Assembly: GCF_000226975.2 (NCBI RefSeq)
Contig: NZ_CP019285.1
Span: 3,162,001-3,226,000 of the forward strand
From: Halobiforma lacisalsi AJ5
Lineage (GTDB): Archaea > Halobacteriota > Halobacteria > Halobacteriales > Natrialbaceae
Length of the DNA: 64,000 nt
Direction: 5' to 3'
The notes under the pieces were generated by a model, which did no database searches, had not been told where the DNA came from, and was given only the letters and a program-made list of their open reading frames with translations. Made by a program: the position numbers and the translations under genes. Below are positions 48,443 through 62,706 of this stretch, piece by piece (within the stretch, counting starts at the first letter, position 1; every line of letters begins with the position of its first letter).

Positions 48443-48603
48443 GACGGTTTACTGCAGTCAGTTCCGGCGCAACTGCCGCCCGGATCGCCGTTGTGCCGGT
48501 ATGTCGGTACAGGGATCCGTATGAACGGTTTTCGCCTCGCGGTTCCGTCGGGGTTGATACTCGAACGCCGTAATACTTTGAACGTCCTTGCACAGTATAA
48601 GGT

Positions 48604-49428
48604 ATGCCAACAGCTAACAGGGACGGAACCTCGATCGCCTACGAGGTCGACGGCCCTGCCGACGGCGAGCCGGTGGTCTTCGTCGAAGGCCTCGGTTACG
48701 GGCGATGGATGTGGCGCTGGCAGCGACGCGGGCTCTCCGAGGAGTACCGGACGATCCTGCCCGACAACCGGGGAACCGGCGAGTCCGACGCGCCGTCGGG
48801 CCCGTACACGATCGAGGGGATGGCGGCCGACCTCGAGGCCGTCCTCGCCGACGTCGGCGTCGAGGAAGCTCACGTCGTCGGCGCGAGCATGGGCGGAATG
48901 ATCGCCCAGACGTACGCGCTCGAGTACGATCGGGCAGCGACGATCTCCCTGCTCTGTACGAGTCCCGGCGGGCCGGAGGCCGAGCCGGTCCCCGAGAGGA
49001 CCCAGCAACGCCTGCTCGACGTTCCCGAGGGGGCAGACGAGCGCGAGACGATCCGTTACCGGATGGAACCGGCCGTTTCCGACGGATTCTACGACGAGAA
49101 CCCGGATCTGGTCGACCGGATCGTCGACTGGCGGCTCGAGAGCGACGCCGACGAGGAGCCCCGTGCCGCCCAGGCCGCGGCGGTGGAGGCGTTCGACGAG
49201 AGCGACCGCGTTTCCGACCTCGAGGTGCCGGCCCTGGTCCTCCACGGGACCGAGGATCGGGTCGTCCCCGTCGAGAACGCGGAACTGCTGGCCGAGCGGC
49301 TCCCCGACGCCTCGCTCGCGCTATGTGAGGGCGGTCCCCACCTCTTTTTCATCGAGGAGTCGGCGTGGGTCAACGAGCGGCTCCGCGAGTTCCTGTCGCG
49401 ACACCCCCTCGAGGAGGGTCGCGCATGA
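48604..49428 (+). CDS. Alpha/beta-fold hydrolase
   Basis: The 274-residue enzyme has the nucleophile elbow 'GASMGGM' (Ser near 96), an acid Asp in 'LHGTEDRVVP' and a His in 'CEGGPHLFF'. The oxyanion segment is 'VEGLGYGRWMW'. A TATA-like CGTAATAC lies about 30 nt before ATG 48604. The stop overlaps the next gene's start (ATGA), linking it to an acyl-CoA ligase. It may release the carboxylic acid that the ligase then activates; ester, lactone or thioester substrates cannot be distinguished. Confidence 0.88.
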   Translation: MPTANRDGTSIAYEVDGPADGEPVVFVEGLGYGRWMWRWQRRGLSEEYRTILPDNRGTGESDAPSGPYTIEGMAADLEAVLADVGVEEAHVVGASMGGMIAQTYALEYDRAATISLLCTSPGGPEAEPVPERTQQRLLDVPEGADERETIRYRMEPAVSDGFYDENPDLVDRIVDWRLESDADEEPRAAQAAAVEAFDESDRVSDLEVPALVLHGTEDRVVPVENAELLAERLPDASLALCEGGPHLFFIEESAWVNERLREFLSRHPLEEGRA

Positions 49429-50999
49429 ACTGGGGGTCCGATCCCTACGAGTGGGTCGGCGACTGGAGCGGGCGCCGAGCGTCGCTGTCGCCGGACCGGA
49501 CCGCAGTGATCGACGAGACCGAGGGCGAAGCGTACACCTACGCCGACCTCGACGACCGGGCCAACGCGACGGCGCGGCTGCTCGAGTCGGTCGGCGTCGA
49601 CGAGGGCGAACGGGTCGCCGTCGTCTCCCGGAACCGGGTCGAGGCGTTCGACCTGTTCTTCGCGACCGGAAAGCTGGGTGCGATCCTCGCGCCGCTGTCC
49701 TATCGGCTCGCGCCGCCGGAACTGGCCGAGTTGCTGGATCTCGTCGAGCCGCGGCTGCTGGTCATCGAGTCGCCGTTCGTCGAGCGGATCGAGCACGCGC
49801 TGGCCCGGGCCGACGTCGATCCGATCGTCTTCGAACTGGCGGCGGACGAGATCGCGGGCGGCTGGGACCTGTACGCCGACCGCGTGCCGGACGACGGGAG
49901 CCCGGTCGAAACCGCCGAGCGGTCGCTCTCGGATCCCCACCTCCTGTTGCACACCGGCGGCTCGACGGGGACGCCCAAGGAGACGACGATCACCCACGGC
50001 TCGATCTACTGGAACTCGTTCAACACGATCACGGCCTGGGGACTGCGGCCCGACGACGTCGCCCCGATGGTGTTCCCGATCTTCCACACGGGCGGCTGGA
50101 ACGTCCTCACGCTCCCGTTTTTCAACATGGGCGGCACGCTGATCATCGACCGCGAGGTCGAACCCGACCGCGTCCTGGAACAGATCGATCGCCACGGTGC
50201 GACGGTGCTCGTCGCGGTGCCGGCCGTGTTGCGGACGATGGCCCGCCACGACGGCTGGGAGCGGGCGGATCTCTCGACGCTTCGCTTCGTCAAGAGCGGC
50301 GGCGGCCCCTGTCGCGACGCGATCGTCCGCGCGTGGCGAAACCGTGGCGTCGAGTTCTCGCAGGGGTACGGGCTGACCGAGTGCGGGCCGAACAATTTCG
50401 CGATGCCCGACGAGTGGGCAAACGAGAAGGTCGCGAGCGTCGGCAAGCCCGTGATGCACACGGACGTCCGCGTGGTCGACGACGACGGGCGAGTGCTCGA
50501 GACCGGCGAGATCGGCGAACTCGAACTCGCCGGGCCCCACGCCGCGGCGGGCTACTGGGGCGATTCGGGCGAGGGCGAGGAGACCTTCGCCGACGGCTGG
50601 GTCTCGACGGGCGACCTGGCCCGGCGGGACGAGGACGGCTTCTACCACATCGAGGGTCGGAAGAAGAACATGTTCATCAGCGGCGGGGAGAACGTCTACC
50701 CACCCGAAGTCGAGGACGAGATCGCGGACCACCCCGCCGTTGCCGAAGTTCTCGTCATCGGCGTCCCAGACGACCAGTGGGGGACTGTCGGGAAGGCCGT
50801 CGTCGAACCAGCCGAGGACGCCGAGACCGAAGACGGGACACCGCTGACCCTGCGGGAACTCGAGGCCTACCTCGACGGCCGCCTCGCCCGATTCAAGATC
50901 CCCAAGTACCTCGAGTTCGTCGACGAGATGCCGACGAGCGGTCCCTCGAAGCTCGACCGGGCGGCCGTCAAGGATCGGTTCGGGGGTGAGCCGGAGTGA
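49425..50999 (+). CDS. Acyl-CoA synthetase (AMP-forming ligase)
   Basis: The 524-residue adenylate-forming enzyme carries 'LLLHTGGSTGTPKETTITH' (P-loop-like A3), 'QGYGLTECGP' (A5), 'GWVSTGDLA' (A7), 'GRKKNMFISGGENVYP' (A8) and catalytic Lys in 'PTSGPSKLDR' (A10). It links a carboxylate to CoA via an acyl-AMP. Chain length or aromatic preference cannot be told from motifs. ATG 49425 overlaps the hydrolase stop; a longer in-frame reading from 49365 would lie inside that gene. Confidence 0.92.
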   Translation: MNWGSDPYEWVGDWSGRRASLSPDRTAVIDETEGEAYTYADLDDRANATARLLESVGVDEGERVAVVSRNRVEAFDLFFATGKLGAILAPLSYRLAPPELAELLDLVEPRLLVIESPFVERIEHALARADVDPIVFELAADEIAGGWDLYADRVPDDGSPVETAERSLSDPHLLLHTGGSTGTPKETTITHGSIYWNSFNTITAWGLRPDDVAPMVFPIFHTGGWNVLTLPFFNMGGTLIIDREVEPDRVLEQIDRHGATVLVAVPAVLRTMARHDGWERADLSTLRFVKSGGGPCRDAIVRAWRNRGVEFSQGYGLTECGPNNFAMPDEWANEKVASVGKPVMHTDVRVVDDDGRVLETGEIGELELAGPHAAAGYWGDSGEGEETFADGWVSTGDLARRDEDGFYHIEGRKKNMFISGGENVYPPEVEDEIADHPAVAEVLVIGVPDDQWGTVGKAVVEPAEDAETEDGTPLTLRELEAYLDGRLARFKIPKYLEFVDEMPTSGPSKLDRAAVKDRFGGEPE

Positions 51000-51066
51000 C
51001 GCCGTCTACCCACCGACAGAGGCAAGTGGTAACATATCAAAGTCGGGACGAACGACAGGATCGTTC

Positions 51067-51768
51067 ATGATCGACCTTACGCTGGACATGGAGCAGTACG
51101 ACTGCCCGTTCATCGATACGACGGACGACCACGCCGTGTCGTTCTCGACGCTCCAGTGGGAGTTCGACCGTCACAGTCGTGAACTCGAGACCCGGATGAT
51201 CGTCGAGGGAGAGAACCGGTCCGTCCTCGAGTCGGGGCTCTCGGCAGTCCAGGAGCACCCGAACATGCGAACCTGTGACCTGTTCAAGAAACGGGAGGAG
51301 CGAGCGGTCATCAGGACGGTGATCGACGAGACGGACGCGATGGCGACGATCAGGGCCAACGGCGGCTACATCACGGGGCCGTTCCACATCCAGGACGGAA
51401 GCGAACGCTGGGATATCGGCTTCGACGAGGAGGCGGACGCCGACGCTGCGCTCGCGGAACTCGAGCGGAACAACGAGTACTCGCTCGAAAGCCGCCAGGT
51501 CATGGCGTTCGACGCTGGTGGCGACGTTCTGGAACACGCCGAGGCCGCGCGCGAACTGCTCGAGGGGTGTCGGGAGCTCTCGACCGTCGAACGCGAAACG
51601 CTTCGGGTCGCAGCGGAGAAGGGCTATTTCGATCAGCCCCGGGGTGCCACGCTGCAGATGCTCGCCAACGAGTTCGACATTTCCGATACCGCCGTCTCGA
51701 AGAACGTCCGCCGGGCCGAACGGAAGATCCTGCGGCGAGTCGTCGACGCGCTCGAGTCCGTCGAGTAG
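51067..51768 (+). CDS. HTH-10 (Bat-type) transcription regulator
   Basis: The 233-residue protein has an N-terminal Bat sensory domain (about 1-150) and a C-terminal HTH-10 (about 170-230, 'LSTVERETLRVAAEKGYFDQPRGA', recognition helix 'DTAVSKNVRRAERKIL'). A TATA-like ACATATC lies about 33 nt before ATG 51067; upstream in-frame reading was rejected for that reason. Its location between the ligase gene and the liv-type operon makes it the natural candidate regulator of both. Confidence 0.87.
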   Translation: MIDLTLDMEQYDCPFIDTTDDHAVSFSTLQWEFDRHSRELETRMIVEGENRSVLESGLSAVQEHPNMRTCDLFKKREERAVIRTVIDETDAMATIRANGGYITGPFHIQDGSERWDIGFDEEADADAALAELERNNEYSLESRQVMAFDAGGDVLEHAEAARELLEGCRELSTVERETLRVAAEKGYFDQPRGATLQMLANEFDISDTAVSKNVRRAERKILRRVVDALESVE

Positions 51769-51855
51769 ATCGAATCGGACCGAGAGCTATCTTTCGGCCT
51801 ATTTTCCCGCGTTTGACTCGTTCGCCCAGGCGTAGGTCCGGTCCCCATTGACCCC

Positions 51856-51873
51856 GGGTTGGTATACCAACCC
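51856..51873. promoter_or_regulatory. 18-bp perfect palindrome, operator candidate
   Basis: GGGTTGGTATACCAACCC is a perfect palindrome. The half-site TTGGTATA recurs at 51885-51892, 26 bp downstream of the copy at 51859. The central GGTATACC may itself be the TATA box: its centre is about 27 nt before a start at about 51892, giving a short leader to ATG 51903. Confidence 0.6.
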
Positions 51874-51902
51874 ATCCAGTATTGTTGGTATAAACACATC
51901 CT

Positions 51903-53279
51903 ATGCTTAGTATGGGATATAATACCACTCGACGTGGGGCGCTGAAGCGAACGGGTGCACTGACCGCGGTCGGCCTCGGTGGGCTCGCAGGGTGTCTCGA
52001 CGAGCAAGGGGGACAGGCGGGCGGCGACCCGGAAGACGAAACGATAACGATCGGCGCGTTGCAGCCGGTGTCGGGCGAACTCGAGTACTACGGACAGATC
52101 AGCCTGATGGGGTTCTACTCCGGCCTGGCGTACAAGTACGGGGTCGATCCCATCGAGGACATGACGACGGGGTCGTACGAGCTCGACCCCGACGACGGGC
52201 CGACGTTCGAGATCATCGTCGAGGACACGGAGTTCAACCCGGAGACGGCCCAGAACGTCGCGGAGAGCCTCGTCGTGGACGAAGACGTCGACCTCCTCTT
52301 CGGCGGATCGTCGTCTGACTCAGCCCGGCGGATCATCCCGAACGTCGTCGACGAGGCGGACGTTCCCTACATCATCGGGCCGGCCGCCGACGGCGACATC
52401 ACCGTCTCGAGCGAGCACTGTCACGACCTCGCGTTCCGCGCGAGCGAACACACGGCGATGGACGCTCGCGCCGGCGGGCGATACGTTGCCGAACAGGGAG
52501 ACGTCTCGACGGTCGCGATCTTCGCCGCGGAGGGCGCGTTCGGCGAAGGCGTCGCGAACAACTACCAGGAGGTCCTCGAGAACCAGGGGGTCGAGGTACT
52601 CGAGCCGCGGTTCGTCGAGGCCGGCTACAGCGAGTTCGAGGGCATGTTCGACGAGGCCGTCGAGCAGGGCGCCGACGGCGTCGTCGGCGGGTTCACGTTC
52701 ATCACCCTCCCCGAGTTCCTCCCGACGGCGATGTCCTACGACGAGATTCAGGCCTTCGGCGGGTTCGCCGCGCTCGTCACGACCCAGATCACGGGGCAGA
52801 CGGTCGAGGCGGTCCTCGGCGAGGACTTCACCGCCGAAGACATTCAGGATGCAGGGCTCGGCCCCTTCACGACCCGATACCACTGGAACCAGTACGACAA
52901 CCCGATCAACGACGAGTTCGTCGATCTGCACATCGACGCCTACGACCAGGTGCCGGACCTGTTCAGCGCCGGGACCTTCGTCGGCGCGTCGGCGCTCGTC
53001 CAGGCAATCGAGGAAAGCGGGTCGACCGAGGGCGAGGACATCGCCGACGCCATGCACGGGATGACCGTCACGGACACGCCGAAAGGCGAGAACGCGTACA
53101 CGTTCCAGGAACACAACAACCAGGCGGCCTCCGCGATGACGGTCGCCTGGCCGGTCCCGACCAGCGAGGAGTACGAGGACACCTGGGACGCGGCCGTGAT
53201 GCCGGGCGAACCGGTCGAGACCTACGCAGCCGAGGAGGTCGTGGTGCCGGCCGAGGAAGCGTCCTGCGACCTGGGGTGA
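51903..53279 (+). CDS. ABC substrate-binding lipoprotein, LivJ/urea/amide type
   Basis: The 458-residue receptor has a Tat signal 'TTRRGALKRTGALTAVG' with lipobox LAGC, so it is lipid-anchored outside. The mature part has the two-lobed type I fold of leucine-type receptors: 'ITIGALQPVSGELEYYG', 'LFGGSSSDSARRIIP', 'FGEGVANNYQEVL'. The ligand is not certain; this family also binds urea, amides and aromatic acids. ATG 51912 is an alternative start, nine bases on. It is the first gene of a coupled five-subunit importer operon. Confidence 0.9.
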   Translation: MLSMGYNTTRRGALKRTGALTAVGLGGLAGCLDEQGGQAGGDPEDETITIGALQPVSGELEYYGQISLMGFYSGLAYKYGVDPIEDMTTGSYELDPDDGPTFEIIVEDTEFNPETAQNVAESLVVDEDVDLLFGGSSSDSARRIIPNVVDEADVPYIIGPAADGDITVSSEHCHDLAFRASEHTAMDARAGGRYVAEQGDVSTVAIFAAEGAFGEGVANNYQEVLENQGVEVLEPRFVEAGYSEFEGMFDEAVEQGADGVVGGFTFITLPEFLPTAMSYDEIQAFGGFAALVTTQITGQTVEAVLGEDFTAEDIQDAGLGPFTTRYHWNQYDNPINDEFVDLHIDAYDQVPDLFSAGTFVGASALVQAIEESGSTEGEDIADAMHGMTVTDTPKGENAYTFQEHNNQAASAMTVAWPVPTSEEYEDTWDAAVMPGEPVETYAAEEVVVPAEEASCDLG

Positions 53280-53288
53280 GGTGATCGA

Positions 53289-54172
<884 letters not shown>

Positions 54173-54176
<4 letters not shown>

Positions 54177-54904
54177 GCGATCCCAGCGACTCCGCAGACG
54201 GCTCCCGACCGCTGCTCGAACTCGAGGGCGTCCACACCTACTACGGCGAGAGCCACGTCCTCCAGGGGGTCGACCTCTCCGTCGACGAGGGGGAGATCGT
54301 CGCCCTGATCGGGCGCAACGGCGTCGGGAAGACGACAACGCTGCGCTCGATCCTGCAACTGACCCCGCCACGCGAGGGGACGGTTCGGTTCCGCGGCGAG
54401 GACGTCACCGGCGAGAGCACCCACGACGTCACCGGGCGCGGCATCGGCTGGGTGCCCGAGGAGCGACGGATGTTCGGCTACCTCACGGTCGAGGAGAACG
54501 TCCGCGTCTCCGTCGGTCCCGACCGCGACTACGAGGCCCTGCGGGAGTACGTCTTCGACCTGTTCCCTGACCTGGAGCAGTTCCGCGAAAAGGAGGCCCG
54601 GAACCTCAGCGGCGGCCAACAACAGATGCTCGCGATCGCCCGAGCGCTGGTCGGCGACAACGACCTGCTGCTGGTCGACGAGCCGAGCGAGGGGCTCGCG
54701 CCGATGATCGTCGACCAGGTCGTCGAGGCGCTGCGGGAAGCGTCCGCGGACACGACCATGATCCTCGTCGAACAGAACTTCCCGCTGGCGATGGACCTCG
54801 CGGATCGGTTCTACCTGCTCGATCACGGGACCGTCGTCGAGTCGGGCGAGACCGAGGGCGTCACCGCCGAGGACGAACGCATCCGGAGGTATCTGTCGGC
54901 ATGA
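54173..54904 (+). CDS. livF: Branched-chain-amino-acid-type ABC transporter ATPase LivF
   Basis: The 243-residue ATPase carries Walker A GRNGVGKTT, 'GWVPEERRMFGYLTVEEN' (Q-loop region typical of LivF), signature LSGGQQQMLAIARAL, Walker B 'LLLVDEPSEGLAP' and switch residues 'LVEQNF'. It pairs with LivG as a heterodimeric motor. Overlaps at both ends (4 bp each) tie it to livG and livH. Confidence 0.92.
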
Positions 54905-55953
54905 CGGGAATGGAATCCGCACTCGCGGTCGCGGCGTCCGGGGTCGTCTCCGACACCCCGCTCGTCGTCGACGCCGTCTCGCGGCTGTTCCGTCCCGATA
55001 CGGTGTCGCGCATCCTCATCGAAGGGCTCGGGAAGGCGTCGATCTACTTCATCATCGCGGTCGGACTGACGCTGGTGTTCGGGCTCATGGGCGTGCTCAA
55101 CTTCGCACACGGCGCCTTCGCGATGCTCGGCGCGTACGTCGGCGGCCTCCTGATGGTGCTCGCGGTCTCGAGCGGCACTGGTCCGTACGCCCGCGTCGCC
55201 TTCTTCGTGGTCGTCGCCGCGGTCGTCTTCGGGCTCATGACGGCCGCCGGAAGCGTCCTCGAGATCGGGCTCGTTCGGCCGATATACGACCGGACGCCGA
55301 TGTACCAGATACTACTGACGTTCGGGGTCGGCCTCATCCTCGAGGAGGGGGCCCGGATCGTCACCTCCGCGCGGGGAATCCAGCCAGAGCCGACCTGGAC
55401 CGGCGCGGCGGCGACGATCCCGAACGCCCTCGAGACGTTCTACTCGATCCTGGGGGCGAGCATCCGCGGGTTCTACATGTTCGCGATCGTCGCCGGGGTT
55501 GCCGTCGCGGCGGCGGTCTGGGCGTTCCTGAACCGGACGCTGTACGGCCTCTACATCCGGGCCGGCAGCGAGGACCCGGAGATGGTCGAGGCGCTCGGTA
55601 TCGACGTCCGGAAGGCGTTTACCGTCGTCTTCGGGCTCGGTACCGGGCTCGCGGCCGTCGGCGGCGTCTTCCTGATGTGGGACCCCACGTGGGGGCCGAG
55701 CGTCCTGTTGAACATCGACGCGTTACTCTATGCGTTCGTCGTGGTCGTCATCGGCGGCCTCGGCTCGTTCAAGGGGACGCTGGCCGCGGCGGTGATCGTC
55801 GGGATCGCCGACTCCTTCACGACCTGGCTGTTCAACACGGGGATCGTCGCCTTCCCCGGCCTCCCCGAAGTGACGATCTTCGCCCTGCTGGTGACCGTAT
55901 TGATCGTCCGCCCACAGGGGCTGTACGGCGTCGAGGAGGTGGGTGGCCATTAG
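54901..55953 (+). CDS. livH: Branched-chain-amino-acid-type ABC transporter permease LivH
   Basis: The 350-residue membrane protein has about eight helices. Family landmarks are 'VFGLMGVLNFAHGAFAMLGAY' in the N-terminal half, 'EALGIDVRKAFTVVFGLGTGLAAVGG' and 'VVVVIGGLGSFKGTLAAAVIVG' in the C-terminal half. The first 35 residues are an extra hydrophilic lead. It forms the channel with LivM. Confidence 0.9.
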   Translation: MTGMESALAVAASGVVSDTPLVVDAVSRLFRPDTVSRILIEGLGKASIYFIIAVGLTLVFGLMGVLNFAHGAFAMLGAYVGGLLMVLAVSSGTGPYARVAFFVVVAAVVFGLMTAAGSVLEIGLVRPIYDRTPMYQILLTFGVGLILEEGARIVTSARGIQPEPTWTGAAATIPNALETFYSILGASIRGFYMFAIVAGVAVAAAVWAFLNRTLYGLYIRAGSEDPEMVEALGIDVRKAFTVVFGLGTGLAAVGGVFLMWDPTWGPSVLLNIDALLYAFVVVVIGGLGSFKGTLAAAVIVGIADSFTTWLFNTGIVAFPGLPEVTIFALLVTVLIVRPQGLYGVEEVGGH

Positions 55954-57391
55954 CCCGACTCGCGACGGTGACCGGGGCCACGATCCGGACGCTGCCGACT
56001 CCACATCGAGCGGAACGGCCACCGACGGCGGCACCGAATCCGCCTCGAGCGCGGGTCCGGACGCGACCGCTGACGACGGGGACCTCGGCGACGGCGCGAC
56101 CGCGACGGCCGAGAGCCCGCTCGCCGAGAACGGGTGGGTTCGCCGGTACTTGCGGGAACACACGGCTCACGCGCTCGTGATCGCGGTCTTCGCGATCTAC
56201 CCGCCGCTGTACGGCGTTCTGTTGCGCCTGCCCGGAATCGACCTGGGGGTCGTGTCGTTCGCCCCGGCGGCGTTCTTCGACGCGTTCCTCCCCGGGACGA
56301 CGTTCGTGATCTCGATGCTGTTCCTGGGGCTGTTCGCGATGAGTTTCGACTTCATCAGCGGCTACACCGGCTACCTCTCGTTCGGCCACGCCGCGTTCTA
56401 CGGCATCGGGGCGTACTTCATCGTCCTCGTGGCTAACGGGGACGTGCCCTTCCTGTCCGAGGGAACGCCGTTCGTGATCACGATGCTCCTCGGAGCCATC
56501 CTCGCCTTCCTCGCCGCGCTGGCGATCGGAGCCGTCTCCTTCCGGCTCACGGGCGTCTACTTCGCGATGATCACGCTCGGGTTCGCCCAGGTGCTGTACG
56601 AACTCATCCGCAACTGGGGCTACGTCGCCGCGAACCCCCAGGAGGGGCCCACTCTCGAGGGGCCGACGCCCGAGATCGGCGTCCCGTACGTCGACTCCCT
56701 GTCGGTCGCGCTCGGCCGCCTCGCCGGGGACAGCTTCGAGAACGTCCTCGGGCTCGGGATCGACGTGTCGGCGACGCTGACCTCCTACTACGCGATCGGG
56801 CTGGTGGTCGTCTGCTGTTACTTCGCGATGCAGCGGATCATCCACTCCCCGTTCGGCCGCGTGATGATCGCCATCCGCGAGAACGAGGAGCGCGCCCGCG
56901 CGGTGGGCTACAACGTGTTCTGGTACAAGATGGCCGCGTTCGGCTTCAGCGGCTTCTTCGCCGCGATCGCCGGCGCGCTGTTCGCCGCCTACTCGGGGGC
57001 CGCGTCGCCGGACACCACGTTCTACTTCCTCGTGACCGCGGACGCTCTGATCGTCGCGATCATCGGGGGACTGGGGACCCTCGCCGGCCCGTTCTTCGGC
57101 TCGGCGTTCTTCGAGTGGCTCGAGGACGTCCTCTCCTCGGAGCAGGGCGGGCTCGCCCCCTACCTCCGGGAGGGGCTGCCCGAGAGCGTGCTGGGGGCCG
57201 ACGTCGGCGGCGTTTCCTTCCTCGAGGTGATCAACGCAGCGGTCGACGGGCGGAGTCAGCTGTACCTGGGTATTGTCTTCGTGCTGTTCGTGTTGTTCGT
57301 CCCCAACGGACTGCTCGGCTCGGTCCGCGATCGGATCGGCGGTCCCGTTGCGAAACGACTGCCCGACTATCTCGATCGATATCGACGATGA
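55943..57391 (+). CDS. livM: Branched-chain-amino-acid-type ABC transporter permease LivM
   Basis: The 482-residue permease has a 60-residue acidic cytosolic N-terminus and about ten membrane helices. Landmarks are 'GYTGYLSFGHAAFYGIGAYF' and 'RAVGYNVFWYKMAAFGFSGFFAAIAGAL', then 'IIGGLGTLAGPFFGSAFFEWL'. The start GTG 55943 overlaps livH by 11 bp. A cytoplasmic-side insert sits near residues 395-435. It is the last transporter gene; the stop overlaps a micro-ORF start. Confidence 0.9.
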   Translation: MAISPTRDGDRGHDPDAADSTSSGTATDGGTESASSAGPDATADDGDLGDGATATAESPLAENGWVRRYLREHTAHALVIAVFAIYPPLYGVLLRLPGIDLGVVSFAPAAFFDAFLPGTTFVISMLFLGLFAMSFDFISGYTGYLSFGHAAFYGIGAYFIVLVANGDVPFLSEGTPFVITMLLGAILAFLAALAIGAVSFRLTGVYFAMITLGFAQVLYELIRNWGYVAANPQEGPTLEGPTPEIGVPYVDSLSVALGRLAGDSFENVLGLGIDVSATLTSYYAIGLVVVCCYFAMQRIIHSPFGRVMIAIRENEERARAVGYNVFWYKMAAFGFSGFFAAIAGALFAAYSGAASPDTTFYFLVTADALIVAIIGGLGTLAGPFFGSAFFEWLEDVLSSEQGGLAPYLREGLPESVLGADVGGVSFLEVINAAVDGRSQLYLGIVFVLFVLFVPNGLLGSVRDRIGGPVAKRLPDYLDRYRR

Positions 57392-57519
57392 CGCTCTCGA
57401 TTCTCCCACCGGATACCGACCACACCCGACGGCCCCTCGACCACGGAGTCGGCTCCGAGAAGATCGATCGAGCGACGCTCGAGGCGGAACCCGGGGAGCG
57501 GGCGGGTGATCCGACGTGA
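57388..57519 (+). CDS. Coupled micro-ORF, 43 aa, unknown
   Basis: ATG 57388 overlaps the livM stop (ATGA), and its own stop overlaps the next GTG (GTGA). The peptide starts 'MTLSILPPDTDHTRRPLDHG' and is acidic at the end. No domain is recognised. The overlap chain on both sides suggests translation in the operon; a spacer without function is the alternative. Confidence 0.5.
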   Translation: MTLSILPPDTDHTRRPLDHGVGSEKIDRATLEAEPGERAGDPT

Positions 57520-57608
57520 CGCTCCGGTCACGGACCCGCTCGAGCCTCGAGGATGCGACGGTCGCGACGCCTTCGGGTCTCGCTGGAAGCCCGGGGTGGT
57601 CCCGATGA
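57516..57608 (+). CDS. Coupled micro-ORF, 30 aa, unknown
   Basis: GTG 57516 overlaps the previous stop, and TGA 57606-57608 overlaps ATG 57605 of the KAS III-like gene. The peptide starts 'MTLRSRTRSSLEDATVATPS', Ser/Arg/Thr-rich. There is no known domain. It continues the overlapping reading chain from livM to the thiolase-fold gene. Confidence 0.4.
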   Translation: MTLRSRTRSSLEDATVATPSGLAGSPGWSR

Positions 57609-58627
57609 CGACGGTCGGGCTCACCGGCTACGGCCGATATTTCCCCGAAGAGACCGTCTCCGCCGAGGAGATCGCCGCCGAGAGCGACGTCCCCGAATCC
57701 GTCGTCCGTGAGAAGATGGGCCTGCGCGAGAAGCGGGTCTGTCCCCCCGACGGGGACCACGCCACCGACATGTGCGTCGCGGCTGCCGAGGGAGCGCTCT
57801 CCGACGCCGACCTCGAGCCCGCGGACGTCGATCTGGTGGTGTACCACGGCAGCGAGTACAAGGACCACGTCGTCTGGTCGGCTGCCGCGAACGTCGCCGA
57901 ACGGCTCGGGGCGGAGAACGCCTACGCCACGGAGAGCTACACCCTCTGTGCGGGCGCGCCGATCGCCGTCCGCCAGACGCGGGCGCAGTTGCGCGCGGAC
58001 CACGTCGACACGGCCCTGCTCGTCGCCGCGAGCCGCGAGGAGGACCTGATCGACTACGAAAACGACCGCTCCTCGTTCATGTTCAACTTCGGCTCGGGAG
58101 CCAGCGCGATGGTGCTCGAGTCCGATCCGGGCGAGCGAAGCCGGGCCATCGTCCACGAGAGCGCCGCCGTCACCGACGGCTCGTTCTCGAAGGACGTGAT
58201 CATGCCCGCCGGCGGGTCGCTCGAGCCGCCCAGCGAGGAGACGGTCTCGACGGGGCTGCACCGACTCGACGTACCCGACCCCGACGGGATGAAAGAGCGG
58301 CTCGCCCCCGTCTCGCTACCGAACTACCTCGAGGTCGCCGACACGGCCCTCGAGCGTTCGGGCCTTTGCCGCGGGGACCTGGACTTCGTCGCGGTCACGC
58401 ACATGAAGCGGTCGTTCCACGAACGGCTGTTCGAGGAACTGGGGCTCGATCCGGTGACTGACGGCTACTACCTGGACGAGTACGGTCACGTCCAGAGCGC
58501 CGACCAGATCATCGCGCTCGAGGAGGGACGGCGGGAGGGCCTGCTCGAACCCGGCGATGTGGTCTGTTTCCTGGCCGCCGGCACAGGCTACACGTGGTCG
58601 GCGACGGCGTTGACCTGGCAGGGCTGA
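57605..58627 (+). CDS. KAS III / HMG-CoA-synthase-like thiolase-fold enzyme
   Basis: The 340-residue protein has the 3-oxoacyl-ACP synthase III fold: 'TTVGLTGYGRYFPEETVSAEEIA' at the N-terminus, active-site Cys115 in 'SYTLCAGAPIAVRQ', His266 in 'AVTHMKRSF' and 'DEYGHVQSADQI' where KAS III has the Gly-Asn-x-Ser motif. The third catalytic position is thus His295 in place of Asn. It ends the liv-type operon and could condense or cleave a CoA ester formed by the ligase upstream. The natural reaction is not known. ATG 57605 overlaps the micro-ORF stop. Confidence 0.85.
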   Translation: MTTVGLTGYGRYFPEETVSAEEIAAESDVPESVVREKMGLREKRVCPPDGDHATDMCVAAAEGALSDADLEPADVDLVVYHGSEYKDHVVWSAAANVAERLGAENAYATESYTLCAGAPIAVRQTRAQLRADHVDTALLVAASREEDLIDYENDRSSFMFNFGSGASAMVLESDPGERSRAIVHESAAVTDGSFSKDVIMPAGGSLEPPSEETVSTGLHRLDVPDPDGMKERLAPVSLPNYLEVADTALERSGLCRGDLDFVAVTHMKRSFHERLFEELGLDPVTDGYYLDEYGHVQSADQIIALEEGRREGLLEPGDVVCFLAAGTGYTWSATALTWQG

Positions 58628-58662: not shown

Positions 58663-58962
58663 TCAAGCCTGGCGTTCTTCGAAGTGTTCCTCGCAGAGGG
58701 TCTGGAAAACGGTCCCGTCCGTTTCGACGCCCCCTCGAGGCGTCTTCTTCACGATTGCGATGCCGTACTCCGCGGGGTCGTCGCAGTCGATGCAGTCGCC
58801 CGGCTGGCCGACGGTCCCTTTCGTCTTCGCCCCCTCGGAACGTATCTCGGCGCAGTCCCGACAGAGCCACCACTTGTTCCCGGGGTCGTCCAGTTCGAAG
58901 ATCCGGTGGGCCATCTTCGCCTGGCTGAATTCGACCGGCGTCGTACAAAAGGCACAGTCCAT
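58663..58962 (-). CDS. Small zinc-binding protein, unknown function
   Basis: The 99-residue protein has four Cys/His pairs: 'CAFC' (3-6), 'CRDC' (about 34-37), 'CIDCDD' (about 57) and 'CEEH' (about 91-94), enough for two zinc sites. The charged middle resembles haloarchaeal orphan zinc-ribbon proteins. ATG 58962 was chosen because the first Cys motif then starts at residue 3; the in-frame reading from 59046 is Arg/Pro-rich. It converges with the KAS III-like gene. Confidence 0.75.
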   Translation of the reverse strand: MDCAFCTTPVEFSQAKMAHRIFELDDPGNKWWLCRDCAEIRSEGAKTKGTVGQPGDCIDCDDPAEYGIAIVKKTPRGGVETDGTVFQTLCEEHFEERQA

Positions 58963-59046
58963 ACTGGACCCCTGCACCACTGGCGTCCTAATGGGGTGCC
59001 ACGAACTGTCATGGGTGGTGGGCTCGAGTCGGAACCGAAACGACAC

Positions 59047-59079: not shown

Positions 59080-59150
59080 GGGACCGTGGGGTAGTGGTAT
59101 CCTCTGCGGATGGGGTCCGTAGGACCCGAGTTCAATTCTCGGCGGTCCCA
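59080..59150 (+). tRNA. tRNA-Pro (anticodon GGG)
   Basis: The 71-nt cloverleaf has acceptor stem GGGACCG/CGGTCCC with A as discriminator, a D-arm 59089-59103, anticodon stem TGCGG/CCGTA with loop ATGGGGT (anticodon GGG, 59112-59114), a four-base variable region and T-arm CCGAG-TTCAATT-CTCGG. There is no intron and no encoded CCA. The region after it differs in composition from the flanking chromosome, so it may be an integration site, although I found no second copy of its 3' end. Confidence 0.95.
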
Positions 59151-59259
59151 CTCGAAATTCTTCGAAACGTCAAATCTTAGCCGTTCATACCCTCGAGCGT
59201 ACTGAAAATCTAATTCTCGGTTTCGGTACAATTCAGGTTAGTCGACAGGCTGTCGTGGG

Positions 59260-60383: not shown

Positions 60384-60869
60384 TTAATCCCAAGTTGTAA
60401 TGACTTGCTGTTCACCTTCGACTTCGCCATAAACTATGATTTCATCAACTGTGTCACTGCTCTGAAGCTCGTGACTGCCGAGATTACTGATTTCGCCTTC
60501 GTCTTCCCCGAGTCCATCGCTGTTGATTTGGACTGAATCACCGACTTCCCAATCTTCAGTGGTATCAGATGTATCTCCATTAACAGCGATATAATCTGCA
60601 CCGCCACTTCCGTTCACGACTTCAACATAGATTGCATCAGTGTTCCCTTCATCAATCACTTGGGGGGTTACATATTCACCAGATTCGTCAAACTCAATAC
60701 CCGCATTGGCGGACTCGCTCATATCACCAAGATCCAGCACGAAAGCTGCAATAACTGCAGCCAGGATCACAGTGATTGCGACCATTAGGATTACTCCTAT
60801 AACAGGAGAGACTCCTCGCTCCTCTTCGCTGCCGACCAATTTGTCGCGAATGATTTTTCCGTCCATCAT
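60384..60869 (-). CDS. Type IV pilin (archaeal class III signal), intact copy
   Basis: The 161-residue protein has the archaeal pilin start: basic n-region, '[20 protein letters not shown]' with cleavage expected after the Gly, then a membrane/filament helix to about residue 47 and an acidic beta-rich body ('VTPQVIDEGNTDAIYVEVVN', 'VDEIIVYGEVEGEQQVITTWD'). Two adjacent ATGs (60869, 60866) may start it. It lies four to seven bases after the stop of a paralogous pilin gene that is interrupted by an insertion element, so both were probably one transcript. Codons are richer in A/T than in neighbouring genes. Confidence 0.85.
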   Translation of the reverse strand: MMDGKIIRDKLVGSEEERGVSPVIGVILMVAITVILAAVIAAFVLDLGDMSESANAGIEFDESGEYVTPQVIDEGNTDAIYVEVVNGSGGADYIAVNGDTSDTTEDWEVGDSVQINSDGLGEDEGEISNLGSHELQSSDTVDEIIVYGEVEGEQQVITTWD

Positions 60870-61234: not shown

Positions 61235-61260
61235 GTTACTTCTGCTGTCACTACTGGTTG

Positions 61261-62706
61261 GTGGAGTCTGTGAACGCAGACGATTTCACCAAAGAAGAGC
61301 TCCTTTCTCGGCTTCTCCAACTTGAGCAACGAGTCGAAGAACTCGAACGGGAGAACAAGCGAAAGGACAAGAAAATCGATCAGAAGGACGAGCGGATAGA
61401 AGAACTCGAAACACGCCTTCGCAAATACGAAAATCCGCATACACCGCCCAGTAAGCGACGGTCGGGGACTGACGAGTCCCCGACCTCGCAGGACGACGAA
61501 GACGAGAATGTTCGAACCGATGGCGGTACTCCCGGACGGAAGGACGGTCACGACCCTGAGTGGCGTGCAACAGCAGATCCCGACAAAGAGATCGATGTCA
61601 CCTGTGACTGTTGTCCCGAGTGTGGCGAACACTTCGACGAGTCGGTGGGCGTCAGCCCCCGACTCGTCGAGGAGGTTCCCGATCCACAGCCACCAGAAAT
61701 CACCCGGTACAACCGTCACTACTACCAGTGCAGCTCTTGTGGAACAGAAACCGTTGCTACACACCCCGACTGCCCCGATGAGGGGCAGTTCGGGGTGAAC
61801 GTCATCTCTCAAGCAGCACTTTCTCGGTACGATCACCGCCTCCCCTACCGGAAAATCGCTGACCGGTTCGAGCAACTGCATGGATTAGAACTCTCGGGCG
61901 CGTCCGCGTGGCACGCGACCGAGCGCGCTGCGCGCGCCGGTCGCTGCGAATACGAACAGATTCGAAGACAGATTCAGCAAGCAGAGATCGTTCACGTTGA
62001 CGAAACCGGTATCAAACGCGAGGGTGAGCAGGCGTGGATTTGGACGTTTCGGACGAGCGAGCACACGCTATACGCCGTAAGGGAGAGTCGTGGAAGTGAT
62101 GTTCCCGCGGAAGTCCTCGGCGAGGACTTCCCGGGAACGGTCATCTGCGATGGGTGGACGGCGTATCCAGCGTTCAGCAGTAACCTTCAGCGGTGCTGGG
62201 CACATCTTCTCCGAGAAGCTGAAGACGCTGCTAGTGACCACGAGGAGGCAGAACCCGTTTACCGGTATCTCAAGCAGATGTTCGTCGGTCTCCAGTCGTG
62301 GCTGGAGACCGACCCGAGTCTTCGTGAGAGAGCACAGATGCACCGCTCATGCCAGAACGGGCTTAGATCGCTCGTGGGGCGGTCAGTAACCGACGAACCA
62401 GTGGCAACACTACTCGGGAAAATCGAAGGAGGGATCGACCACTGGCTCACCTTCGTCGGTGAGCCAGCGGTCTCCCCGACGAACAACGCAGCTGAGAACG
62501 CACTTCGTGAACCAGTCGTTCTCCGGAAAATCATCGGGACACTCCGTAACGATCGAGGTATGTTCGTTCACGAGACGATCTTGTCCCTGCTGGCGACATG
62601 GCGCCAGCAGGGACGCAATCCCTACGAAGAACTTCGCCGAGTCGTCAACAACAATGAGATGATATCACGGGCTCACACTGAACCGGCTGTTGAGACTTCG
62701 GGGTAA
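61261..62706 (+). CDS. IS66-family transposase
   Basis: The 481-residue transposase has an N-terminal coiled coil (about 9-57), a Cys-rich zinc domain (115-171; C115, C117, C118, C121, C157, C160), and an RNase-H-fold DDE core: Asp247 in '[10 protein letters not shown]', Asp297 in 'VICDGWTAY', Glu412 in '[10 protein letters not shown]'. GTG 61261 is chosen; TTG 61258 and GTG 61270 are alternatives. The gene contains a regular series of long inverted repeats, reported separately. It reads against the interrupted pilin gene. Confidence 0.93.
61460..62614. repeat. Array of long inverted repeats inside the transposase gene
   Basis: Hairpins by position (stem length): 61460-61485 (11 bp, loop 4); 61634-61670 (16 bp, one bulge, loop 4); 61762-61797 (15 bp, one bulge, loop 5); 61915-61944 (13 bp, one bulge, loop 3); 62101-62138 (17 bp, one bulge, loop 3); 62284-62313 (12 bp, loop 6); 62442-62467 (10 bp, loop 6); 62494-62523 (7 bp, loop 16); 62583-62614 (13 bp, loop 6). 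Centres of the strong ones are about 130-190 nt apart. They lie wholly within codons. Confidence 0.9.

What the first reader, a model, noticed from the sequence alone, without database searches (positions are those of the whole stretch)
48604..58627. Uptake-and-activation cluster: hydrolase, CoA ligase, Liv-type importer, KAS III-like enzyme
Overlapping genes join a hydrolase to a CoA ligase, and a complete LivJGFHM importer to a thiolase-fold enzyme, with an HTH-10 regulator between the two sets. Such a set suggests import of a small carboxylate, amide or amino-acid derivative, release or activation to a CoA ester and condensation or cleavage. I do not know a described pathway with exactly this content, and no standard branched-chain degradation genes (BCKDH, acyl-CoA dehydrogenase) are present.
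Basis: inference. Interest (0 to 1): 0.6.

Follow-up and report, generated by a model that had tools for sequence, protein, structure and literature searches.

The report
Co-regulated archaeal acid-uptake and CoA-activation cluster
A salt-loving archaeon carries a set of importer and enzyme genes, also found in many other archaea and in some bacteria, that look built to take up and break down a small organic acid; an unusual ketoacyl-synthase-like enzyme sits where a thiolase normally would, and one shared DNA switch site appears to turn on both halves of the set.

Summary
The nine genes are real. Two operons, hydrolase–CoA ligase and binding protein–LivGFHM–KASIII-like, flank an HTH_10 regulator gene.

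The set is not a chance neighbourhood. All 28 relatives with the KASIII-like gene (of 119) also hold the ligase and binding-protein orthologs. Importer genes lie within 10 kb in 33 of 40 named haloarchaeal loci, and KASIII–ligase–hydrolase–importer groups recur in Chloroflexota.

New here: a palindrome (GTT-N8-AAC) lies about 51-54 bp upstream of both operons. It passes threshold at 50/52 binding-protein and 21/26 hydrolase promoters, against 1% of unrelated genes. In this genome the specific form occurs only at these two sites. A related palindrome precedes 3-hydroxybutyrate-dehydrogenase-like genes beside paralogs of the regulator. Other versions of the cluster contain that dehydrogenase, a MaoC hydratase, or a thiolase plus DUF35.

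Best reading: import, optional ester hydrolysis and CoA activation of a short 3-hydroxy or 3-oxo acid, then thiolase-like cleavage by the KASIII-fold enzyme, which has an invariant His where FabH has its catalytic Asn. Shown: genes, conservation, linkage, motif. Inferred: substrate, reaction direction, regulator–motif pairing.

The parts
48552..48567 (+). GGTTGATACTCGAACG: shared operator-like palindrome, 51 bp upstream of the hydrolase start
   Evidence: Exact match of G000:C1:3210552-3210567; PWM 12.4 bits; 21/26 hydrolase upstreams of relatives pass 12 bits, nearly all at about -51, against 1.1% of 556 unrelated ORF upstreams
48604..49428 (+). alpha/beta hydrolase (PcaD-like branch), catalytic Ser95-Asp218-His246 intact
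   Evidence: Pfam PF00561 4e-28; NCBIfam 3-oxoadipate enol-lactonase models best, far below cut-off; triad conservation
49425..50999 (+). acyl-CoA ligase (AMP-forming), FadD/MenE-like; ATGA overlap with the hydrolase
   Evidence: PF00501/PF13193; NCBIfam PRK06187 and PRK06839 best, below cut-offs; nearest solved structures fatty-acyl-CoA synthase and feruloyl-CoA synthetase
51026..51043 (+). weak palindrome-like site upstream of the regulator (possible autoregulation)
   Evidence: PWM 12.3 bits in window; only 4/46 relatives have one upstream of the regulator
51067..51768 (+). HTH_10 regulator with HVO_2525_N domain; candidate activator of both operons
   Evidence: PF24279 + PF04967; conserved in the cluster; paralogs beside BDH-like SDR genes
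51857..51872 (+). GGTTGGTATACCAACC: perfect palindrome, core about 54 bp upstream of the binding-protein start
   Evidence: Only other genomic match of GGTTGRTAYWCSAACS with up to 1 mismatch; 50/52 SBP upstreams carry the motif
51912..53279 (+). lipoprotein-type substrate-binding protein of a Liv/HAAT importer
   Evidence: PF13458; AF2 model pLDDT 91.0; Foldseek best hits RPA4397 and aromatic-acid-binding SBPs ahead of Leu-binding LivK
53289..54176 (+). LivG-type ATPase
   Evidence: PF00005 + PF12399
54173..54904 (+). LivF-type ATPase
   Evidence: PF00005
54901..55953 (+). LivH-type permease
   Evidence: PF02653
55943..57391 (+). LivM-type permease
   Evidence: PF02653
57605..58627 (+). KASIII-fold enzyme of NF005308/PRK06840; codons for Cys 57947-57949, His 58400-58402, His 58487-58489 (C116/H267/H296 counted from 57602)
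   Evidence: NF005308 411 bits (cut-off 315); AF2 pLDDT 94.2; Foldseek FabH family, TM 0.8-0.9; Cys 58/59, both His 59/59 across archaea and bacteria

Best explanation
The cluster is one regulated unit of two operons for scavenging a small organic acid, most likely a short-chain 3-hydroxy or 3-oxo acid (3-hydroxybutyrate/3-hydroxyvalerate type) or its ester or dimer. Proposed steps: (1) the lipoprotein SBP and LivGFHM import it; (2) the alpha/beta hydrolase releases the free acid if it arrives as an ester; (3) a 3-hydroxybutyrate-dehydrogenase-like SDR, inside the cluster in many relatives and elsewhere in this genome, oxidises 3-hydroxy to 3-oxo acid; (4) the AMP-forming ligase makes the CoA ester; (5) the KASIII-fold enzyme takes the thiolase position, using its Cys for acyl transfer and splitting the 3-oxoacyl-CoA into shorter acyl-CoAs. 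The HTH_10 regulator switches on both operons through the shared GTT-N8-AAC palindrome just upstream of the promoters. Shown: genes, conservation, linkage, motif, replacement of the FabH Asn by an invariant His. Inferred: substrate, reaction direction, regulator-motif pairing.
For: Linkage and co-occurrence across haloarchaea and the KAS-ligase-hydrolase-MaoC/BDH-Liv set in Chloroflexota. A BDH-family SDR is a recurrent partner: TIGR01963 349 bits, cut-off 307, in a Chloroflexota cluster; best family but below cut-off in haloarchaea; the residues I recall as contacting hydroxybutyrate (Gln, His, Lys, Tyr, Gln) align in all three proteins compared. In two KAS-less genomes the set holds an SCP-x thiolase (DUF35 called in one) instead. 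Regulator paralogs sit beside BDH-like SDR + AMP-forming CoA synthetase, often with another Liv importer, and one locus of this genome has regulator + CoA-transferase-like pair + thiolase + SSS symporter + BDH-like SDR. Shared palindrome at both operons, with related palindromes before the paralog-linked SDR genes, including the copy near G000:C1:169824. SBP model nearest carboxylate-binding SBPs.
Against: The window cluster has no SDR, MaoC or thiolase of its own. BDH-like SDR genes also occur in 75/119 relatives, so they are not specific to the KAS module. No ligase-substrate evidence. KASIII enzymes normally condense rather than cleave, so step 5 is the weakest. Five haloarchaeal loci have KAS without the importer. 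No biochemical or expression data.
Confidence: 0.45

Rival explanations
1. Uptake and side-chain shortening of an aromatic or longer carboxylic acid (phenylpropanoid or fatty acid type): importer, CoA ligase, MaoC hydratase, SDR, KASIII-like thiolysis, hydrolase as thioesterase.
For: SBP structural neighbours are 4-hydroxybenzoate/vanillate/phenylpyruvate binders; nearest solved ligases include feruloyl-CoA synthetase; MaoC and SDR partners fit a beta-oxidation-like loop.
Against: No ring-cleavage or acyl-CoA dehydrogenase genes named in the clusters; the SDR belongs to the free-acid 3-hydroxybutyrate dehydrogenase family, not an acyl-CoA dehydrogenase; SBP identity to those binders is only 16-23%.
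Confidence: 0.22
2. A condensing, biosynthetic role: the KASIII-like enzyme joins two acyl-CoAs (compare OleABCD: KASIII-like, alpha/beta hydrolase, AMP-ligase, SDR) or works in a complex like archaeal thiolase/HMG-CoA synthase/DUF35 or PhlACB.
For: Enzyme classes match; thiolase orthologs occur in 11/28 KAS+ genomes, in several of them inside the cluster, some with DUF35, and that trio is known from PhlACB and the archaeal thiolase/HMGCS complex (PMC6392133); haloarchaeal members all carry a GSE motif resembling the HMGCS Glu (by eye).
Against: The importer in the same operon argues for catabolism; OleA is a remote match (E ~1e-4); the SDR is BDH-type; most KAS+ genomes, this one included, lack the thiolase partner.
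Confidence: 0.2
3. An ordinary branched-chain amino-acid importer with loosely associated enzymes.
For: Importer architecture is LivKHMGF; SBP fold shared with Leu/Ile/Val binders.
Against: Conserved co-occurrence, shared operon with KAS and shared operator with hydrolase/ligase; SBP model ranks aromatic/carboxylate binders first; no branched-chain degradation genes in the cluster.
Confidence: 0.07

Closest known systems
NCBIfam NF005308 / PRK06840 '3-oxoacyl-ACP synthase' (KASIII-like)
   Same: Full-length match far over cut-off; FabH fold; nucleophile Cys conserved
   Different: Family has no tested function that I found; His replaces the FabH Asn; embedded in an uptake cluster
Ketone-body type 3-hydroxybutyrate utilisation (BDH, acetoacetate activation, thiolase)
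   Same: BDH-family SDR, CoA activation, thiolase-fold enzyme and a transporter recur across cluster versions and regulator-paralog loci
   Different: FadD-like ligase instead of CoA transferase or AacS; KASIII-fold enzyme in the thiolase place; Liv-type importer; archaeal HTH_10 control
Liv/HAAT ABC importers for aromatic acids of Rhodopseudomonas palustris
   Same: SBP fold and importer architecture; carboxylate ligands
   Different: Only about 18-23% SBP identity; no aromatic catabolism genes nearby
Archaeal thiolase/HMGCS/DUF35 complex and PhlACB acylase
   Same: KASIII-fold + SCP-x thiolase + DUF35 combination in a subset of relatives
   Different: Most KAS+ genomes, including this one, lack the thiolase partner

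Membership tests
NF005308/PRK06840 KASIII-like family | Score over the curated cut-off (315 bits), full length | tested here: met
   410.9 bits, residues 5-341 against 4-336 of 339
FabH (beta-ketoacyl-ACP synthase III) | Cys-His-Asn catalytic triad | tested here: not met
   Cys 58/59 and His 59/59 kept; Asn position is His in 59/59; triad geometry not measured
FabH (beta-ketoacyl-ACP synthase III) | KASIII fold | tested here: met
   AF2 pLDDT 94.2; Foldseek TM about 0.81-0.92 to FabH structures
Thiolase (activity) | Thiolytic cleavage of 3-oxoacyl-CoA | not testable with these tools
   Position argument only: thiolase in KAS-less clusters
Liv/HAAT importer | SBP + two BPD_transp_2 permeases + two ATPases in one operon | tested here: met
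Liv/HAAT importer | Branched-chain amino-acid specificity | not testable with these tools
   SBP model nearest carboxylate/aromatic binders
3-hydroxybutyrate utilisation cluster | BDH-family dehydrogenase in the cluster | tested here: inconclusive
   Absent in the window; present in 12 of the 47 fetched loci and several Chloroflexota loci; a copy elsewhere in this genome carries a related palindrome
OleABCD olefin cluster | OleA-type condensing enzyme | tested here: not met
   OleA structures match only the C-terminal part at E ~1e-4, FabH at 1e-23
HTH_10 regulator with HVO_2525_N domain | Both Pfam domains over cut-off | tested here: met
   PF24279 67.0 and PF04967 60.7 bits

The most novel reading that the evidence does not exclude
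A KASIII-fold enzyme family with an invariant Cys and two His in place of FabH's Cys-His-Asn works catabolically, as a thiolase substitute, in a conserved archaeal and bacterial acid-scavenging module; in haloarchaea an HTH_10 regulator family ties it, through one palindromic operator, to 3-hydroxybutyrate-dehydrogenase regulons.
Probability: 0.3. Interest if true: 0.72.

Novelty: new variant of a known kind. Interest (0 to 1): 0.58.

Why it matters
It gives testable context to a widespread enzyme family annotated only as '3-oxoacyl-ACP synthase', in archaea that are not known to use ACP-dependent fatty-acid synthesis (general knowledge). If the enzyme cleaves, it would be a KASIII-fold thiolase substitute. 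The shared palindrome gives a concrete candidate target for an HTH_10 regulator, a large haloarchaeal family for which, to my knowledge, few targets besides that of Bat are worked out, and it links import to 3-hydroxy-acid metabolism in organisms known for PHA storage.

Tried and rejected
The DUF106/EMC3-like, cytidylate kinase and TruB genes upstream recur beside the cluster in related genomes but look like the insertion neighbourhood, not pathway parts. Literature searches for PRK06840, HVO_2525, 3N0X/3NND and 3-hydroxybutyrate uptake by Liv-type systems gave nothing useful. A first palindrome guess (TTGGTATACCAA, up to 2 mismatches) found only 11/60 SBP upstreams; widening to GTT-N8-AAC found 50/60. 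No motif was found before KAS where it lacks an adjacent importer, except L053. The plasmid search added Halobaculum, Halomicrococcus and Salarchaeum members at 66-70% identity; weaker hits were other KASIII annotations. Thiolase co-occurrence with KAS is weak (p = 0.02), so an obligate complex was rejected.
Full report
Observation. Nine genes were read on the plus strand and identified by Pfam and NCBIfam. The hydrolase (48604-49428) and ligase (start ATG 49425) overlap by ATGA. The regulator starts at 51067. Binding protein, livG, livF, livH and livM follow; the last four overlap. The KASIII-like gene (conserved start 57605) lies about 210 bp after livM, a correction to the finding's wording. 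The hydrolase keeps its Ser-Asp-His triad.

Conservation. A family search of 119 related genomes found the KASIII-like family over cut-off in 27, plus one contig-truncated copy counted here (28). All 28 hold the ligase and SBP orthologs, against 5/91 and 10/91 without it (Fisher 2e-22 and 3e-19, no correction for shared ancestry). A collection scan gave 47 named loci. Importer genes lie within 10 kb in 33 of 40 haloarchaeal ones; L053 and L062 are cut by contig ends, and L034, L043, L047, L065 and L067 lack the importer nearby. In Chloroflexota, KAS, ligase, hydrolase, MaoC, BDH-family SDR and Liv genes recur together in many loci.

Partners. The SDR is a 3-hydroxybutyrate dehydrogenase over cut-off in a Chloroflexota cluster, and the same family is best but below cut-off in haloarchaea; catalytic and, from memory, substrate-contact residues align. 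MaoC hydratase and SCP-x thiolase + DUF35 occur in subsets. Two KAS-less genomes (G019, G043) keep ligase, regulator, thiolase, SBP and importer, with DUF35 called in G043, which suggests the thiolase can fill the KAS place. Eleven of 28 KAS+ genomes hold that thiolase, so KAS does not strictly need it. KASIII + thiolase + DUF35 is the make-up of PhlACB and the archaeal thiolase/HMGCS complex (PMC6392133).

KASIII-like enzyme. AlphaFold2 on 40 homologs gave pLDDT 94.2; Foldseek places it with FabH. Counting from 57602, Cys116 (58/59), His267 and His296 (59/59 each) are conserved in archaea and bacteria. His296 aligns with the FabH Asn. I call this a putative Cys-His-His triad; distances were not measured because no coordinates were available.

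Binding protein. The model (pLDDT 91.0) is nearest to RPA4397 and to SBPs solved with hydroxybenzoate or vanillate, ahead of Leu-binding LivK, at 18-23% identity. This favours a carboxylate ligand weakly.

Shared operator. Upstream sequences side by side showed a palindrome, GTT-N8-AAC, typically GTTnACATGTnAAC. A PWM built from SBP-upstream sites scores 50/52 SBP and 21/26 hydrolase upstreams above 12 bits, against 1.1% of 556 upstreams of unrelated ORFs, 0/37 ligase and 4/46 regulator upstreams. The SBP set trained the PWM, so its figure is partly circular; the hydrolase set did not, so it is the independent test. In relatives the hydrolase site sits at about -51. In this genome GGTTGRTAYWCSAACS with up to one mismatch occurs only at the two cluster sites, control zero; that pattern was itself drawn from the two sites.

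Regulator paralogs. Homologs of the regulator occur in 69/119 genomes. Many stand beside a BDH-like SDR and an AMP-forming CoA synthetase, some with another Liv importer; the synthetase is closest to acetate-CoA ligase models but below their cut-offs. In this genome one paralog locus (L152) holds two proteins that I read as CoA-transferase subunits, a thiolase over cut-off, an SSS symporter and a BDH-like SDR. NCBIfam named neither subunit, so that label is my reading. The palindrome precedes most of the paralog-linked SDR genes, and the SDR at G000:C1:169824 has a variant, GTTGCTATGTTAAC; L152 does not.

Mechanism. I infer uptake, optional ester hydrolysis, oxidation, CoA activation and thiolase-like cleavage of a short 3-hydroxy or 3-oxo acid, with both operons switched by the HTH_10 protein. 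Haloarchaea make PHA, and a haloarchaeal depolymerase releases 3-hydroxybutyrate (PMC4823750), so such acids are plausible in their habitat. Substrate, direction and regulator-motif pairing are inference.

Limits. Gene calls in fetched loci came from a simple ORF scorer and may miss or misplace genes. Co-occurrence statistics ignore phylogeny. Several loci are near-duplicates of one genome seen through two collections. Paper searches cover open-licence PMC only.

Noticed in passing
window 59080-59151: tRNA-Pro (GGG) just downstream of the cluster.
   Followed up: no
window 61258-62706: IS66-family transposase in a stretch of lower GC.
   Followed up: no
window 60384-60869: Archaeal type IV pilin-like protein on the minus strand.
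   Followed up: no
window 58663-59046: Small minus-strand ORF of 127 aa with several Cys pairs and no Pfam or NCBIfam match.
   Followed up: no
L034, L043, L047, L067: KASIII-like gene without the importer nearby but next to a protein resembling a class I glutamine amidotransferase; the first three have a hydrolase homolog (39-44%) just upstream.
   Followed up: partly
L140-L144: SBP-Liv importer orthologs standing without ligase, KAS or adjacent regulator, yet with the palindrome upstream.
   Followed up: partly
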